From positions 299,978-363,977 of the forward strand of contig CAJNDS010001724.1 of NCBI GenBank assembly GCA_905221605.1: 64,000 nucleotides of DNA, written 5' to 3'. The notes beneath the pieces are model-generated. The model was not told the DNA's origin. It was given only the letters and a program-made list of their open reading frames with translations, and searched no databases. Source of the stretch: Symbiodinium natans. Lineage: Eukaryota > Sar > Dinophyceae > Suessiales > Symbiodiniaceae. Below, one piece after another: positions 1,962-56,878 of this stretch; within the stretch, counting starts at the first letter, position 1; each line of letters begins with the position of its first letter. Made by a program: the position numbers and the translations under genes.

Positions 1962-2003
1962 GCGGCCGAGAGAAATGTGACGTTTTCGCCGGCTCCGCCC
2001 CCG
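1962..2003 (+). CDS. A-type module exon
   Basis: Reads AAERNVTFSPAPPP between acceptor GGGGCAG and donor GTACTT, 14 codons, phase 0 to 0. The NVTFSPA core and the exon end six codons after Phe match the other A exons. It is followed in order by a B exon (2100) and a C exon (2235), the first dispersed module of the window. Confidence 0.72.
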
Positions 2004-2099
2004 GTACTTGAGCGACGATGCCGCACCCTAAACCCTAAATCCTAAACCCTAAACCCTATATAACGACTTTCCGATCCTCAATCCGAAGCCGCTGCTGAG

Positions 2100-2142
2100 G
2101 AAGTTGCGCAGGAGGGAGAGTCATCCTCTGCCTGGCGCAAAG
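2100..2142 (+). CDS. B-type module exon
   Basis: Reads EVAQEGESSSAWRK plus the first base of a Gly codon. Acceptor is CTGAG and donor GCGGGC (GC class). The Glu-Val start and the RK-G end, broken after the first base of Gly, are the B hallmarks. An upstream acceptor CCGAAG would add a few Ala residues. Confidence 0.6.
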
Positions 2143-2234
2143 GCGGGCATGCGAGCTTACAGCCGAGGAGTCTGCAGTGTTGCTTTCTTGCTTTGTGCTA
2201 ACGACTCCGAAAATCTGCGAGCATGTGTGGGGAG

Positions 2235-2287
2235 GCACGGGCTTTGTGAGAATGTCAGACTTCCCAGACGATGACACGGAGTCCGAG
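2235..2287 (+). CDS. C-type module exon
   Basis: 53 nt. Completes a Gly codon and then reads TGFVRMSDFPDDDTESE, ending at a GTACGC donor. Length, phase (1 to 0) and the acidic tail match the ten array copies. Acceptor is GGGGAG followed by GC. Confidence 0.8.
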
Positions 2288-2515
2288 GTACGCTGGCATT
2301 GCGTAGGCATGGCGGATCAAGCTCGAAGTTGTTTAGGTTTAGGGTTTGGTAGGAAAAGGGTTGAGGGTTTAGAAAAGGGTTTAGGGTTTAGTAGAAAATG
2401 GTTTAGGGTTTCTTGGGATCAGGGGAGGTTTAGGGAACACAGTTTGAGAGCCTCATATGCTCCGCGGATTTCTCTGGCATGCTGGACTTGTTTGATGAGG
2501 GGACCGTGCGAGCAG

Positions 2516-2557
2516 GCCACACAGAAGAATGTTACATTTTCACCGGCCGGGCGCTTA
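2516..2557 (+). CDS. A-type module exon, 3' end uncertain
   Basis: Reads ATQKNVTFSPAGRL after acceptor GCGAGCAG. The core is clear, but no G-starting donor follows the sixth codon after Phe. The exon may run on through LLSR to the GTGTGT donor. Confidence 0.55.
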
Positions 2558-2688
2558 CTTCTGTCGAGGTGTGTGAGTTTAGGGCTTAAGGTTTGGGGTT
2601 TAAGGTTTAGGGTTTAGGGTTTTAGGGTTTAGGGTTTAGGGCTGTAGTCAGATGCTGGCGTGCCAGCCGGAGATGGTGCTGCCTGCAG

Positions 2689-3035
2689 GAAGTGGATGGC
2701 CTGTCTGCGCAGCAGGAGGGGGATGCATCCACCGGCAACCGGAAAGGCCGGGCAGTGATAGGTTGCCAGCACAGGCACAGGCACACAGGGTTCTCGGCTC
2801 CCAACCTTGTATTTGTTCTGCGCCGATGTTGATGCTTTTCGGCTTCGGGTCTGGTGGCAAGATCTTTGGCAGGCACAGGCTTTGTGAAAATGTCAGACCT
2901 GCCAGATGATGATGACGAGTCAGAGGCTGGTGTTTGTGTGAGCTGGCACCCTTTCCTCCCCCTGTTCTAATTGTCGAGCAAAAACCATGAACGCAGGCAG
3001 AGAAGACTGTGACCTTCTCACCGGCAGCGCTCTCA
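2689..3035 (+). CDS. Array unit 1 (exons B, C, A)
   Basis: B 2689-2746 reads EVDGLSAQQEGDASTGNRK+G. C 2873-2925 reads (G)TGFVKMSDLPDDDDESE. A 2997-3035 reads AEKTVTFSPAALS. Donors are GCCGGG, GCTGGT and GTTCGG; acceptors are CTGCAG, TTGGCAG and ACGCAG. B ends on the first base of a Gly codon that C completes, so the frame closes. Confidence 0.85.
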
Positions 3036-3092
3036 GTTCGGGTGTAGTCAGATGCTCGTGTGCCAGCTGGTTGGATACAACGCCGTCTGCAG

Positions 3093-3436
3093 GAAGTGGA
3101 TGGCCTGTCTGCGCAGCAGGAGGGGGATGCATCCACCGGCAACCGAAAAGGCAGGGCAGTGATAGGTTTGAGGTCCGTCACAGGCACACAGCTTCTCGGC
3201 TCCCAACCTTGTGTTTGTACTGCACATCTGTTGGTGCTTTCTGCTTCGGGTCTGGTGGCAAGATATTTGACAGGCACAGGCTTTGTGAGAATGTCAGACC
3301 TGCCAGATGATGATGACGAGTCAGAGGCTGGTGTTTGTTTGAGCTGGCACGCTTTCCTCGCCATGTTCTAATTGTCGATCAAAAACCATGCATGCAGGCA
3401 GATAAGACTGTGACCTTCTCACCGGCAGCACTCTCA
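3093..3436 (+). CDS. Array unit 2 (exons B, C, A)
   Basis: B 3093-3150, C 3274-3326 (TGFVRMSDLPDDDDESE), A 3398-3436 (ADKTVTFSPAALS). Subtype a intron. The Arg codon of the B end is CGA here and CGG in the other copies, a synonymous change. Confidence 0.85.
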
Positions 3437-3497
3437 GTTCGGGTGTAGTCAGATGCTCGTGTGCCAGCTGGTTCGATGGATATGGCGCCGTCTGCAG

Positions 3498-3843
3498 GAA
3501 GTGGATGGCCTGTCTGCGCAGCAGGAGGGGGATGCATCCACCGGCAACCGGAAAGGCAGGGCAGTGATAGGTTGCCAGCACAGGCACAGGCACACAGGGT
3601 TCTCGGCTCCCAACCTTGTATTTGTTCTGCGCCGATGTTGATGCTTTCGGCTTCGGGTCTGGTGGCAAGATCTTTGGCAGGCACAGGCTTTGTGAAAATG
3701 TCAGACCTGCCAGATGATGATGACGAGTCAGAGGCTGGTGTTTGTGTGAGCTGGCACCCTTTCCTCCCCGTGTTCTAATTGTCGAGCAAAAACCATGAAC
3801 GCAGGCAGATAAGACTGTGACCTTCTCACCGGCAGCGCTCTCA
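3498..3843 (+). CDS. Array unit 3 (exons B, C, A)
   Basis: B 3498-3555, C 3681-3733, A 3805-3843. Subtype b intron. The sequence just past A is GTTCGGACG where most copies have GTTCGGGTG, so variation starts at the predicted donor. Confidence 0.85.
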
Positions 3844-3904
3844 GTTCGGACGTAGTCAGATGCTCGTGTGCCAGCTGGTTCGATGGATATGGCGCCGTCT
3901 GCAG

Positions 3905-55032: not shown

Positions 55033-55161
55033 ATCTTGGGGCTTGGCACTTGCCTGAGGTGGCTGTGGGTTCAGGAAGGTCCTTGCGCAGGCTTGTTTCT
55101 CGAGTTGACTCCTTTCGCCCTCTGAAATCGTCCCTGCAGGGGGGGCTCAACCCGAAGACCC

Positions 55162-55183
55162 TCCATAGCCATTTTGGCTCAGG
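55162..55183 (+). other. Relict dinoflagellate spliced-leader sequence
   Basis: CCATAGCCATTTTGGCTCAG matches the 22-nt dinoflagellate spliced leader (CCGTAGCCATTTTGGCTCAA core) at 20 of 22 positions. Known family fact: dinoflagellate mRNAs receive this leader by trans-splicing, and retroposed cDNAs carry it back into the genome. About 60 bp downstream an F4 element begins, so little of any retroposed gene remains. Confidence 0.7.
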
Positions 55184-55239
55184 GTTCGAGCCTCAAACAA
55201 GAAGCGTCGGGTGTCATTGTGGTTGTCCGTTTTGCAATT

Positions 55240-55350
55240 TTAGACTCCATGTACCGAAATAGGGAATACGTGGAACTGAAAGTACCTCCTATATAGGGAC
55301 TGTTGGGCCCAAGTAAAGATCAACGCGGTACATAGGGGAGGGTCCGAAGA
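55240..55350. mobile_element. F4 TIR element, diverged
   Basis: GACTCCATGTACCGAAATAG ... TGGGCCCAAGTAAAGATC ... GCGGTACATAGGGGAGGGTC. Confidence 0.45.
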
Positions 55351-55733
55351 TGGTTTAGTGTCAAGGCTCCAGCAGCCCACTCCGCGCAGTCTGCACCCGG
55401 GGCCTTGTTGACGCTGAAGTCGTGTCCCCTAAGCCCTGAACCCTGAACCCTGAACCCTAAACCCTAAACCCTAAACCCTGAACCCTAAACCCTAAACCCT
55501 AAACCCTAAACCCCTCCCCCTCTGCACACATCCTCCACTTCCCCCCGATAGAGCTCCCACGCAACAACGGGTTAGGCCAGGTATTCGCTGGCCACTGGTG
55601 GCTCCGGATGGACTCAAACCCTAACCCGATACCCGAAACCCGAAACCCGATCCCGAAACCCTAAACCCTAAACCCTAAACCCTAAACCCTAAACCCTAAA
55701 CCCTAAACCCTTCGCCTTGGACTTCGGCGGGAG

Positions 55734-55786
55734 GAAATGGCTACGTGGCAGCCCCGGGCCTTCCAGAGGAGGACGAAGAGAAGGAG
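55734..55786 (+). CDS. C-type module exon
   Basis: 53 nt between GGCGGGAG and GTTCGG: (G)NGYVAAPGLPEEDEEKE. The Asp run is replaced by Glu. Confidence 0.76.
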
Positions 55787-55796
55787 GTTCGGAGCT

Positions 55797-55910
55797 CAGG
55801 TTTAGGGTTTAGGGTTTAGGGTTTAGGGTTTAGGGTTTAGGGTTTAGGGTTTAGGGTTTAGGGTTTAGGGTTTAGGGTTCAGGGTTCAGGGTTTAGGGTT
55901 TAGGGTTTAT
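55797..55910 (+). repeat. Telomeric (TTTAGGG)n block
   Basis: About 16 repeats beginning 11 bp after the C exon. Confidence 0.95.
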
Positions 55911-55993
55911 AAGTTATAGGGGTTTTGGGTTTTGGGTTTAGGTTTGAGGGCGGAGGGGAGCCGGGGTTGAAAAGGGTTTAGGGTTCAGGGTTT

Positions 55994-56093
55994 CTTGGGG
56001 ACTACATGAACCCTAGAAGGCTTTAGTGGTCCAGACTCCCTCCTCAGGATTCTAGTAGTATAGGGCGATTTTGGGTTCATCTGGTCGTTGGGG
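55994..56093. mobile_element. F2 TIR element
   Basis: CTTGGGGACTACATGAACCC ... TCTAGTAGTATAGGGCG ... GGGTTCATCTGGTCGTTGGGG. Confidence 0.6.
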
Positions 56094-56201
56094 TCCGTTC
56101 AAGATTTATAGGGTTTCGGCTAGACTCTAAAACCCTAAACCCTCAACCCTCAACCCTAAACCCTCAACCCTAAACCCTAAACCCCACCCAATGGTTCTGA
56201 G

Positions 56202-56250
56202 GAAGCGAACGCCGCCAGCGAGGCAGAGCCCCCCAAGCCACCAGACCAAG
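56202..56250 (+). CDS. B-type module exon
   Basis: 49 nt between GGTTCTGAG and GCCAGC: EANAASEAEPPKPPDQ+G. Length, phase and donor match; RK is replaced by DQ. Confidence 0.7.
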
Positions 56251-56822
56251 GCCAGCTGGAATTGGGGTTTCAGGTTTAGGGTTTAGAGTTTAGAGTTTAG
56301 GGTTTAGGGTTTGGGGTGTAGGGTTTAGGGTTGAGGGTTTAGGGGTGTGTATCAGTGTACGCGCGCGTGGAGTGCTTTTTGTTCTCTAGATTCGGGGGCA
56401 CACTCCCTATCTAGAGTATAACCCCCAACCCCCCCCCCAGCACGCAGGCTTTCTTGGTTCTCTGGAATTTCAGCGGCTCCTTCTTAGGCAAGCCAGAACC
56501 CCAAACCCTACGCAAACCCTCTACAGTTCGATTATAAGTTTTGACATGCTGTGTACGAGTTTTCTCTCACAATTCAACGAACCCACAGAGAAGCAGGTTT
56601 CGGGTTCTGAGCCGGAGAACTGCCAGCTGCGCAGTCCTGGTTGCAAACGGAGATCTGCACATCTAAGCCTTAAAGCTTCAGGGTTTAGCCCCTGTAGACT
56701 TTACTCTTAATAATATTATTATTACCATTATTTTCATCATTATTATAATTGTTACTACTCTTTTTTTTTTGGGGGGGAGGGGGGGTGGGGGGGCGAACTC
56801 TGAACCCCGTGGGATTTTGGAG

Positions 56823-56878
56823 GTACCGGCTCCGTCACAAATGCCAACAACCCCGCGGAGGAAGAGGAGGAGGACGAG
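56823..56878 (+). CDS. C-type module exon
   Basis: 56 nt between ATTTTGGAG and GTGCCT: (G)TGSVTNANNPAEEEEEDE. Confidence 0.72.

What the first reader, a model, noticed from the sequence alone, without database searches (positions are those of the whole stretch)
1962..56878. A repeated three-exon module (A-B-C, about 50 residues) encoded by microexons across more than 50 kb
Three exon types recur in fixed order, length and phase: A ends FSPAxxS (about 39 nt, phase 0-0), B ends SAPRK-G (49-58 nt, phase 0-1), C is GTGFVRxSDLPDDDEESE (53/56 nt, phase 1-0). I count about 20 good A, 22 B and 22 C exons including the array. Phases close so that RK-G|GC-ACx-GG joins B to C. I know of no described protein built this way; the exons are too short for ordinary gene finders and would be missed.
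Basis: partly seen in the sequence, partly recalled or inferred. Interest (0 to 1): 0.92.

Follow-up and report, generated by a model that had tools for sequence, protein, structure and literature searches.

The report
Dinoflagellate repeat protein from microexon triplets
A stretch of dinoflagellate (algal) DNA encodes part of a long, probably floppy protein whose repeats of about 45 residues are each pieced together from three very short exons, and related proteins in other dinoflagellates carry the same joined repeat.

Summary
From 1962 to 17176, 51 exons run in unbroken A-B-C order (17 triplets). All have AG acceptors and GC/GT/GA donors and join to a 774-codon open frame. Splice-aware A and C scans find nothing comparable on the minus strand. 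Copies differ mostly at third codon positions, and array exons vary less than array introns. Ten weaker exons lie at 45.8-56.9 kb (four found by eye only), so 'across 50 kb' is only partly right.

'No described protein' needs qualifying: searches returned 36 proteins, each with at least one joined module, including transcripts; every organism named is a dinoflagellate. I found no Pfam family or paper for the repeat.

Best reading: a disordered, multivalent, phosphorylation-regulated tail. A exons carry an RVxF-type (PP1-docking) motif in 17/17 window modules and 32/40 Symbiodiniaceae-type modules, but only 19/183 kinase-type ones. PP1 docking is inferred, not shown. Exons also tend to sit between inverted telomere-like repeats.

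The parts
1962..17176 (+). Core block: 51 exons, A-B-C x17, spliced length 2322 nt (774 codons)
1962..2287 (+). Module 1: A 1962-1991, B 2100-2142, C 2235-2287
2516..7192 (+). Modules 2-12, near-identical; tandem array of 405-bp genomic units (Tandem Repeats Finder 2669-5284 and 5474-6873, split by a TTTAGGG insert 5284-5474)
   Evidence: exon diversity 0.022 against intron 0.073, 8 of 9 units used
8537..10262 (+). Module 13: A 8537-8563, B 9337-9385, C 10210-10262
10738..11769 (+). Module 14: A 10738-10764, B 11244-11292, C 11717-11769
12581..13592 (+). Module 15: A 12581-12607, B 13114-13162, C 13537-13592
14086..14744 (+). Module 16: A 14086-14112, B 14471-14519, C 14692-14744 (GA donor)
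15755..17176 (+). Module 17: A 15755-15787, B 16093-16147, C 17109-17176
18161..25074 (+). Further microexons of the same gene, colinear with the end of P0009: 18161-18199, 18502-18534, 20631-20708, 22507-22554, 24715-24771, 25030-25074
   Evidence: tblastn E 0.047, 4.6, 4e-7, 0.14, 5e-5, 0.005; exact splice sites not settled
45759..56878 (+). Late, degenerate exons: A 45759, A 47138, B 47355, C 47690, B 48705, C 49669, B 50948, C 55734, B 56202, C 56823
   Evidence: four of ten by eye only, two near background

Best explanation
The window is nuclear DNA of a dinoflagellate close to Symbiodinium and holds the middle of one long gene. Shown from sequence: each 42-52-residue module is spliced from three microexons: A (27-33 nt, phase 0-0, ending K/R-x-V-T/S/H-F-S/A-P/Q), B (43-58 nt, phase 0-1, a linker ending RK) and C (53-68 nt in the core, phase 1-0, GTGFVxxSDLP plus an acidic run). 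Because a triplet is a multiple of three, one genomic unit (405 bp in the array) can be duplicated in tandem without loss of frame; the array is such an expansion. Inferred: the modules form a disordered, multivalent tail that binds signalling partners and is controlled by phosphorylation. Exon A is a docking site for protein phosphatase 1 (RVxF motif), the B|C seam (R-K-G-T) is the target of an Arg-directed kinase, and the acidic end is a CK2-like site or charge patch. Copy number sets the number of docking sites. My split of belief: gene, splicing and family about 0.93; disordered multivalent tail about 0.7; PP1 docking as the role of A in this gene about 0.35.
For: Order, phase, frame and splice sites of 51 exons with minus-strand controls. 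Third-position excess: minimal changes at codon positions 1/2/3 are 6/5/16 in A, 8/6/17 in B, 9/6/27 in C; pN/pS 0.32, 0.48, 0.25. Array exons 8 of 138 sites variable, introns 43 of 263, Fisher p 0.0025. 36 homologues, each with 1-12 modules, including the Apocalathium transcript protein P0002. Arg three before the Thr in 268 of 272 modules. Strict RVxF: window 17/17 (10/10 distinct linkers), Symbiodiniaceae-type 32/40, tubulin-ligase-type 5/6, against shuffled means 0.09, 0.71, 0.08. F-to-T spacing 18-23 in the window, 23 in inhibitor-1 (F12, Thr35; PMC5758809 passages). RVxF consensus from PMC3735429 passages.
Against: Strict RVxF is present in only 19 of 183 kinase-type and 5 of 26 other modules (above shuffled means of 1.10 and 0.22, but a small minority), so PP1 docking cannot be what the whole family conserves; RKGTGFV is. 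Some diverged copies were found by protein similarity, which biases pN/pS downward. The exact A|B junction rests on P0007, a gene model, and on the GC/GT donor codon. The only structure model has mean pLDDT 42.9 from four sequences and says little. No transcript of this species; no binding data.
Confidence: 0.5

Rival explanations
1. The conserved unit is RKGTGFV...LP plus acidic run, which binds a dinoflagellate-specific partner or acts as a charged, possibly glutamylated, microtubule- or cilium-linked tail (as in RPGR-ORF15, recalled); the V-x-F of exon A is only a generic hydrophobic patch.
For: RKGTGFV is the constant part across all groups. In kinase-type modules a looser [KRH]x(0-1)[VIA]x[FWIVLM] is found in 155 of 183 but strict RVxF in 19 of 183. 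One relative, P0030, is a tubulin-tyrosine-ligase-family protein (PF03133, E 4e-59) with six modules.
Against: In the window and its near kin F is kept in nearly all modules, far above shuffles, which a generic patch would not need. No localisation data.
Confidence: 0.35
2. The modules are a structural or charge-buffering filler that expands by unequal exchange, with little specific function.
For: Rapid tandem growth of the array; acidic low-complexity C ends; late copies decay.
Against: Exon constraint against introns in the array and third-position excess; core kept across dinoflagellates.
Confidence: 0.1
3. The locus is a pseudogene or a non-coding satellite that only looks coding.
For: Late copies often lack an A exon and have lost core residues; a LINE (25.5-29.9 kb) and PPR-like ORFs are interleaved.
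Against: No stop or frame break over 51 core exons, though exons were chosen as open; array exons are constrained; homologues exist as transcripts.
Confidence: 0.05

Closest known systems
Unnamed dinoflagellate proteins with RKGTGFV repeats (P0001-P0036; e.g. Apocalathium MMETSP0371 P0002, Symbiodinium CCMP2592 P0007 and P0009, S. pilosum P0011)
   Same: Joined A-B-C module in the same order; P0007 and P0009 look like parts of an orthologue
   Different: The window has a lineage-specific array of about 11 near-identical modules; many relatives carry a kinase-like or tubulin-ligase domain that I did not find in the window; their exon structure was not seen
PP1 regulators with an RVxF motif; inhibitor-1 and DARPP-32 in particular
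   Same: RVxF followed by an Arg-directed Thr site; F12 to Thr35 is 23 residues in inhibitor-1, 18-23 in the window
   Different: Single copy there, tandem here; RKGT here; homology not shown, binding not tested
Schistosome micro-exon genes (MEGs)
   Same: Proteins made of many very short exons; the A exons (27-33 nt) are short and symmetric
   Different: In MEGs the exons are mainly symmetric and 36 bp or less, and the genes are reported as restricted to schistosomes (PMC8293314 passages); here B and C are asymmetric and only B plus C together keep frame
Aphid bicycle and megacycle genes
   Same: Many microexons in one gene; megacycle has more than 100 (PMC9168663 passages)
   Different: Bicycle internal exons almost all have phase 2; here phases cycle 0-0, 0-1, 1-0 and the three exons form a repeat
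Dinoflagellate introners (Amoebophrya and others)
   Same: Non-GT donors; inverted repeats near intron ends
   Different: Here the inverted repeats are telomere-like runs at varying distance; target-site direct repeats not tested

Membership tests
Dinoflagellate RKGTGFV repeat family (defined here) | RKGTGF[V/I]xxx[D/E]LP followed by an acidic run, repeated | tested here: met
   17 of 17 core window modules have R-K-G-T-G-F/Y-V/I and P at the LP place
Dinoflagellate RKGTGFV repeat family (defined here) | Significant full-length sequence match to other members | tested here: met
   11 proteins at E<=1, best 7.6e-44, with a joined 496-aa query
PP1 regulators (RVxF) | [R/K]x(0-1)[V/I]{P}[F/W] motif | tested here: met
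   17/17 window modules, shuffled mean 0.09; consensus from PMC3735429 passages
PP1 regulators (RVxF) | Binding to or regulation of PP1 | not testable with these tools
   needs a binding assay
Inhibitor-1/DARPP-32 | Thr phosphorylated by PKA a fixed distance after RVxF | tested here: inconclusive
   R-K-G-T at 18-23 residues after F; phosphorylation not testable; no homology search against inhibitor-1 was run
Schistosome micro-exon genes | Mainly symmetric exons of 36 bp or less | tested here: not met
   A exons qualify; B (43-58 nt, phase 0-1) and C (phase 1-0) do not; criteria
Aphid bicycle genes | Internal exons nearly all in phase 2 | tested here: not met
   phases 0-0, 0-1, 1-0; criterion
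Introner-type introns | Repeated introns with terminal inverted repeats and direct repeats at splice sites | tested here: inconclusive
   Orientation of telomere-like runs at exon flanks is biased as inverted repeats at intron ends would be; direct repeats and shared intron sequence not tested

The most novel reading that the evidence does not exclude
A tandem, evolvable array of PP1-docking phospho-switches: each repeat couples an RVxF dock, on its own 27-33-nt microexon, to an Arg-directed threonine site at the next splice seam, with inhibitor-1-like spacing. The array grows by duplication of a frame-safe three-microexon genomic unit, and the microexons are bracketed by inverted telomere-like repeats that help define them for splicing.
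Probability: 0.2. Interest if true: 0.82.

Novelty: new variant of a known kind. Interest (0 to 1): 0.56.

Why it matters
It shows a repeat protein whose repeat unit is a frame-closing triplet of short exons, so the number of protein repeats can change by duplication of intron-containing DNA. Such exons are easy to miss or mis-bound; even here the A boundary was misread because the donor is GC. The repeat occurs beside PDZ-, kinase- and tubulin-ligase-like domains in dinoflagellates, has no Pfam family that I found, and offers a testable phosphatase-docking hypothesis. The telomere-like runs around the exons, if general, would be a new lead on how dinoflagellates define exons or gain introns.

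Tried and rejected
Pfam on a 346-aa joined module string: three matches, all below cut-off, E 0.076-0.11. PDB by sequence with a 63-residue module: none. Weak S1, DUF5472, YPEH2ZP and similar matches in homologues lie on acidic repeats and were not believed, although one or two pass a cut-off (P0003 DUF5472 26.7 against 25; P0008 S1 28.1 against 22). Structure prediction of P0007 from four sequences: mean pLDDT 42.9; no fold search was run on it. Alignment search A2 returned only two proteins, both already known. LC8-type binding (K-x-V-Q-I) was considered by eye for kinase-type relatives and not tested. A C-like stretch at 17578 scored 12.9, within the shuffle range (five shuffles, highest 15.3), and by eye has no AG in the right place; dropped. 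With duplicate modules removed, 28 of 35 have strict RVxF; without those two proteins, 21 of 26. P0013 was put in the kinase type by resemblance of its start only; Pfam finds no kinase domain in it.

Paper searches (open PMC set, 10 of 10 used): TTTAGGG+introns+dinoflagellate (4 papers), interstitial telomer+introns+dinoflagellate, telomeric repeats+introns+Symbiodini, RKGTGF strings (47, none), dinoflagellate+microexon (48, 3, not relevant by listing), RVxF and inhibitor-1 (49, 3), micro-exon genes, bicycle genes (60, 1), dinoflagellate+pseudokinase (64, 10 found, 8 listed), introner+telomeric repeat (69, 2). Seen as passages only: PMC11453091, PMC7789003, PMC5758809, PMC3735429, PMC8293314, PMC9168663. 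All others were seen only in listings.
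Full report
Source of the DNA. G+C is 48-55%. The window has many TTTAGGG/CCCTAAA runs, a reverse transcriptase ORF (PF00078, E 7.7e-22) and introns with GC, GT and GA donors; GC/GA donors are reported at 25-74% in Symbiodiniaceae (PMC11453091 passage). Of 36 protein matches, the six that bear an organism name are dinoflagellates: Apocalathium, Cladocopium goreaui, Symbiodinium CCMP2592 (two), S. pilosum and CCMP2456; a seventh carries a label I recall as Breviolum minutum. So this is dinoflagellate nuclear DNA, near Symbiodinium. 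The source genome could not be searched.

The observation. A profile scan found strong A- and C-type exons on the plus strand and a B-end scan found SAPRK-like ends only there. I catalogued 61 exons, re-read three donors, and then shortened the A exons. From 1962 to 17176 the order is A-B-C seventeen times with no gap; each triplet is a multiple of three; the joined frame has 774 codons and no stop. A splice-aware rescan recovers the same 17 A and 17 C well above the minus strand.

A correction. In the gene model P0007 the order is ...KNVTFSPEVEESRGDQSSNWRQGTGFV..., so FSP joins directly to B. In the window the codon after FSP is GCN in 17 of 19 copies and GTN in two: the 'conserved alanine' is the intron donor. 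A exons are thus 27-33 nt and modules 42-52 residues.

Coding selection. Among 7 A, 8 B and 8 C copies (the array represented by end copies) pN/pS is 0.32, 0.48 and 0.25, and minimal changes at the third codon position are two to three times those at the first and more at all three exon types (16, 17, 27 against 6, 8, 9). Copies found by protein similarity bias this downward. The array is free of that bias: with eight of nine units (a 597-bp unit with a TTTAGGG insert left out), exon diversity is 0.022 and intron diversity 0.073; 8 of 138 exon sites and 43 of 263 intron sites vary (Fisher p 0.0025).

Relatives. A 496-aa joined query gave 11 proteins at E<=1, best 7.6e-44. An alignment of four of them gave 32 at E<=0.001, and a second alignment gave two already known; 36 in all, each with 1 to 12 modules. 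Both large searches scored only the roughly 8,000 candidates sharing most words, so the list may be incomplete and says nothing firm about other lineages. P0002 is a transcript protein of Apocalathium aciculiferum; P0016, P0024, P0025 and P0026 carry mmetsp transcript labels. Of 23 proteins with a contig length listed that I tabulated, 17 have an ORF covering over 75% of the longest contig, as cDNA would; this is indirect.

Gene context. P0006 has a PDZ domain above the Pfam cut-off; P0007 and P0011 have PDZ matches just below it. P0007 and P0011 lead from there into modules that by eye resemble window modules 1 and 13, so the 5' end of this gene probably lies upstream of the window. The end of P0009 is colinear with window segments at 17108, 18161, 18502, 20631, 22507, 24715 and 25030 (tblastn E 1e-6, 0.047, 4.6, 4e-7, 0.14, 5e-5, 0.005, whose output was cut). 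Several are weak alone; the common order and strand carry the argument. Where P0007 has one module (DERIVSFSP...VADLPDDDESE) the window has the array, so the array looks like a lineage-specific expansion.

Relatives also carry the modules behind other domains: a kinase-like domain (precomputed or scanned PF00069 in most of the 22 that I call kinase-type) and a tubulin-tyrosine-ligase domain (P0030). In 12 of 18 kinase-type sequences examined the catalytic-loop region could be located, and HRD and DFG are replaced there (WAHCGxSP, xLE/xLD); in six my pattern did not match; strict HRD-like and DFG patterns were absent from all 18. They look like pseudokinases.

What the module contains. In 272 modules (window plus 36 relatives), Arg stands three before the threonine in 268 and the LP proline is in place in 232 (sums mine; the search pattern required T and F/Y but not R or LP). 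Strict RVxF lies upstream in 17/17 window modules, 32/40 Symbiodiniaceae-type, 5/6 tubulin-ligase-type, 19/183 kinase-type and 5/26 others, against shuffled means of 0.09, 0.71, 0.08, 1.10 and 0.22. So PP1 docking is a fair guess for this gene and its near kin and a poor one for the family as a whole. The F-to-T spacing resembles that of inhibitor-1; this is analogy, not homology.

Mechanism. Most likely the modules are a disordered multivalent tail that recruits, and is controlled by, phosphorylation enzymes. The only model made has low confidence and neither proves nor excludes disorder. Frame arithmetic predicts that skipping A, or B with C together, keeps frame, while skipping B or C alone does not.

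The late cluster. Ten exons at 45.8-56.9 kb are degenerate; four were found by eye only. They are interleaved on the same strand with PPR-like ORFs at 53.4-54.5 and 58.1-59.3 kb (Pfam matches below cut-off). Whether they share the transcript of the core is open.

Telomere-like runs. There are 125 merged runs, 73 TTTAGGG and 52 CCCTAAA. A CCCTAAA run is followed by a TTTAGGG run within 250 nt 27 times, the reverse order 12 times; orientation shuffles give a mean of 15.4 and at most 25 in 20,000. Around 37 exons outside the array, runs within 100 nt are 11 CCCTAAA to 3 TTTAGGG upstream and 3 to 17 downstream (Fisher p 3.4e-4; orientation shuffle p 7e-4). Exceptions exist (for example exon 1962 is flanked the other way), and within 300 nt upstream the split is only 13 to 10. 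Inverted repeats at intron ends, exapted splicing signals or introner remains would all fit.

Verdict. A real, coding, multi-microexon repeat gene of an unnamed dinoflagellate family, unusual in architecture and consistent with known GC-donor, intron-rich biology. The strongest new claims (a PP1-docking array; telomere-like repeats framing exons) are hypotheses with statistical support only.

Noticed in passing
window introns, e.g. 8443-8695, 10132-10328, 13964-14251, 55659-55905: Exons tend to sit between a CCCTAAA run upstream and a TTTAGGG run downstream, so intron ends carry inverted telomere-like repeats: within 100 nt 11:3 upstream and 17:3 downstream; short CCCTAAA-to-TTTAGGG gaps 27 against a shuffled mean of 15.4.
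   Followed up: partly
25539-29948: LINE-type element in two adjacent ORFs, reverse transcriptase PF00078 E 7.7e-22 in the second; a piece of it is present twice, at 25320 and 26272.
   Followed up: partly
53391-54473 and 58146-59308: PPR-like ORFs on the plus strand, Pfam matches below cut-off, interleaved with late module exons at 55734, 56202 and 56823; nested or overlapping genes, or decay.
   Followed up: partly
20631-20711, 24715-24771, 43928-43990, 57437-57530: A second acidic-aromatic motif (YDxDFDxxFE-like); the first two match P0009, 43928 is by eye, and the last may be a terminal exon with a stop (weak match).
   Followed up: partly
P0012-P0029 (relatives): Kinase-type relatives carry the modules as a C-terminal tail and lack HRD and DFG patterns, so they look like pseudokinases; P0026 ends in a SAM domain.
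   Followed up: partly
P0030 (relative): Tubulin-tyrosine-ligase-family protein with six modules in its tail.
   Followed up: no
7534-7647 and 43019-43185: Other short tandem repeats: 36-bp unit x3.2 and 33-bp unit x5.1.
   Followed up: no
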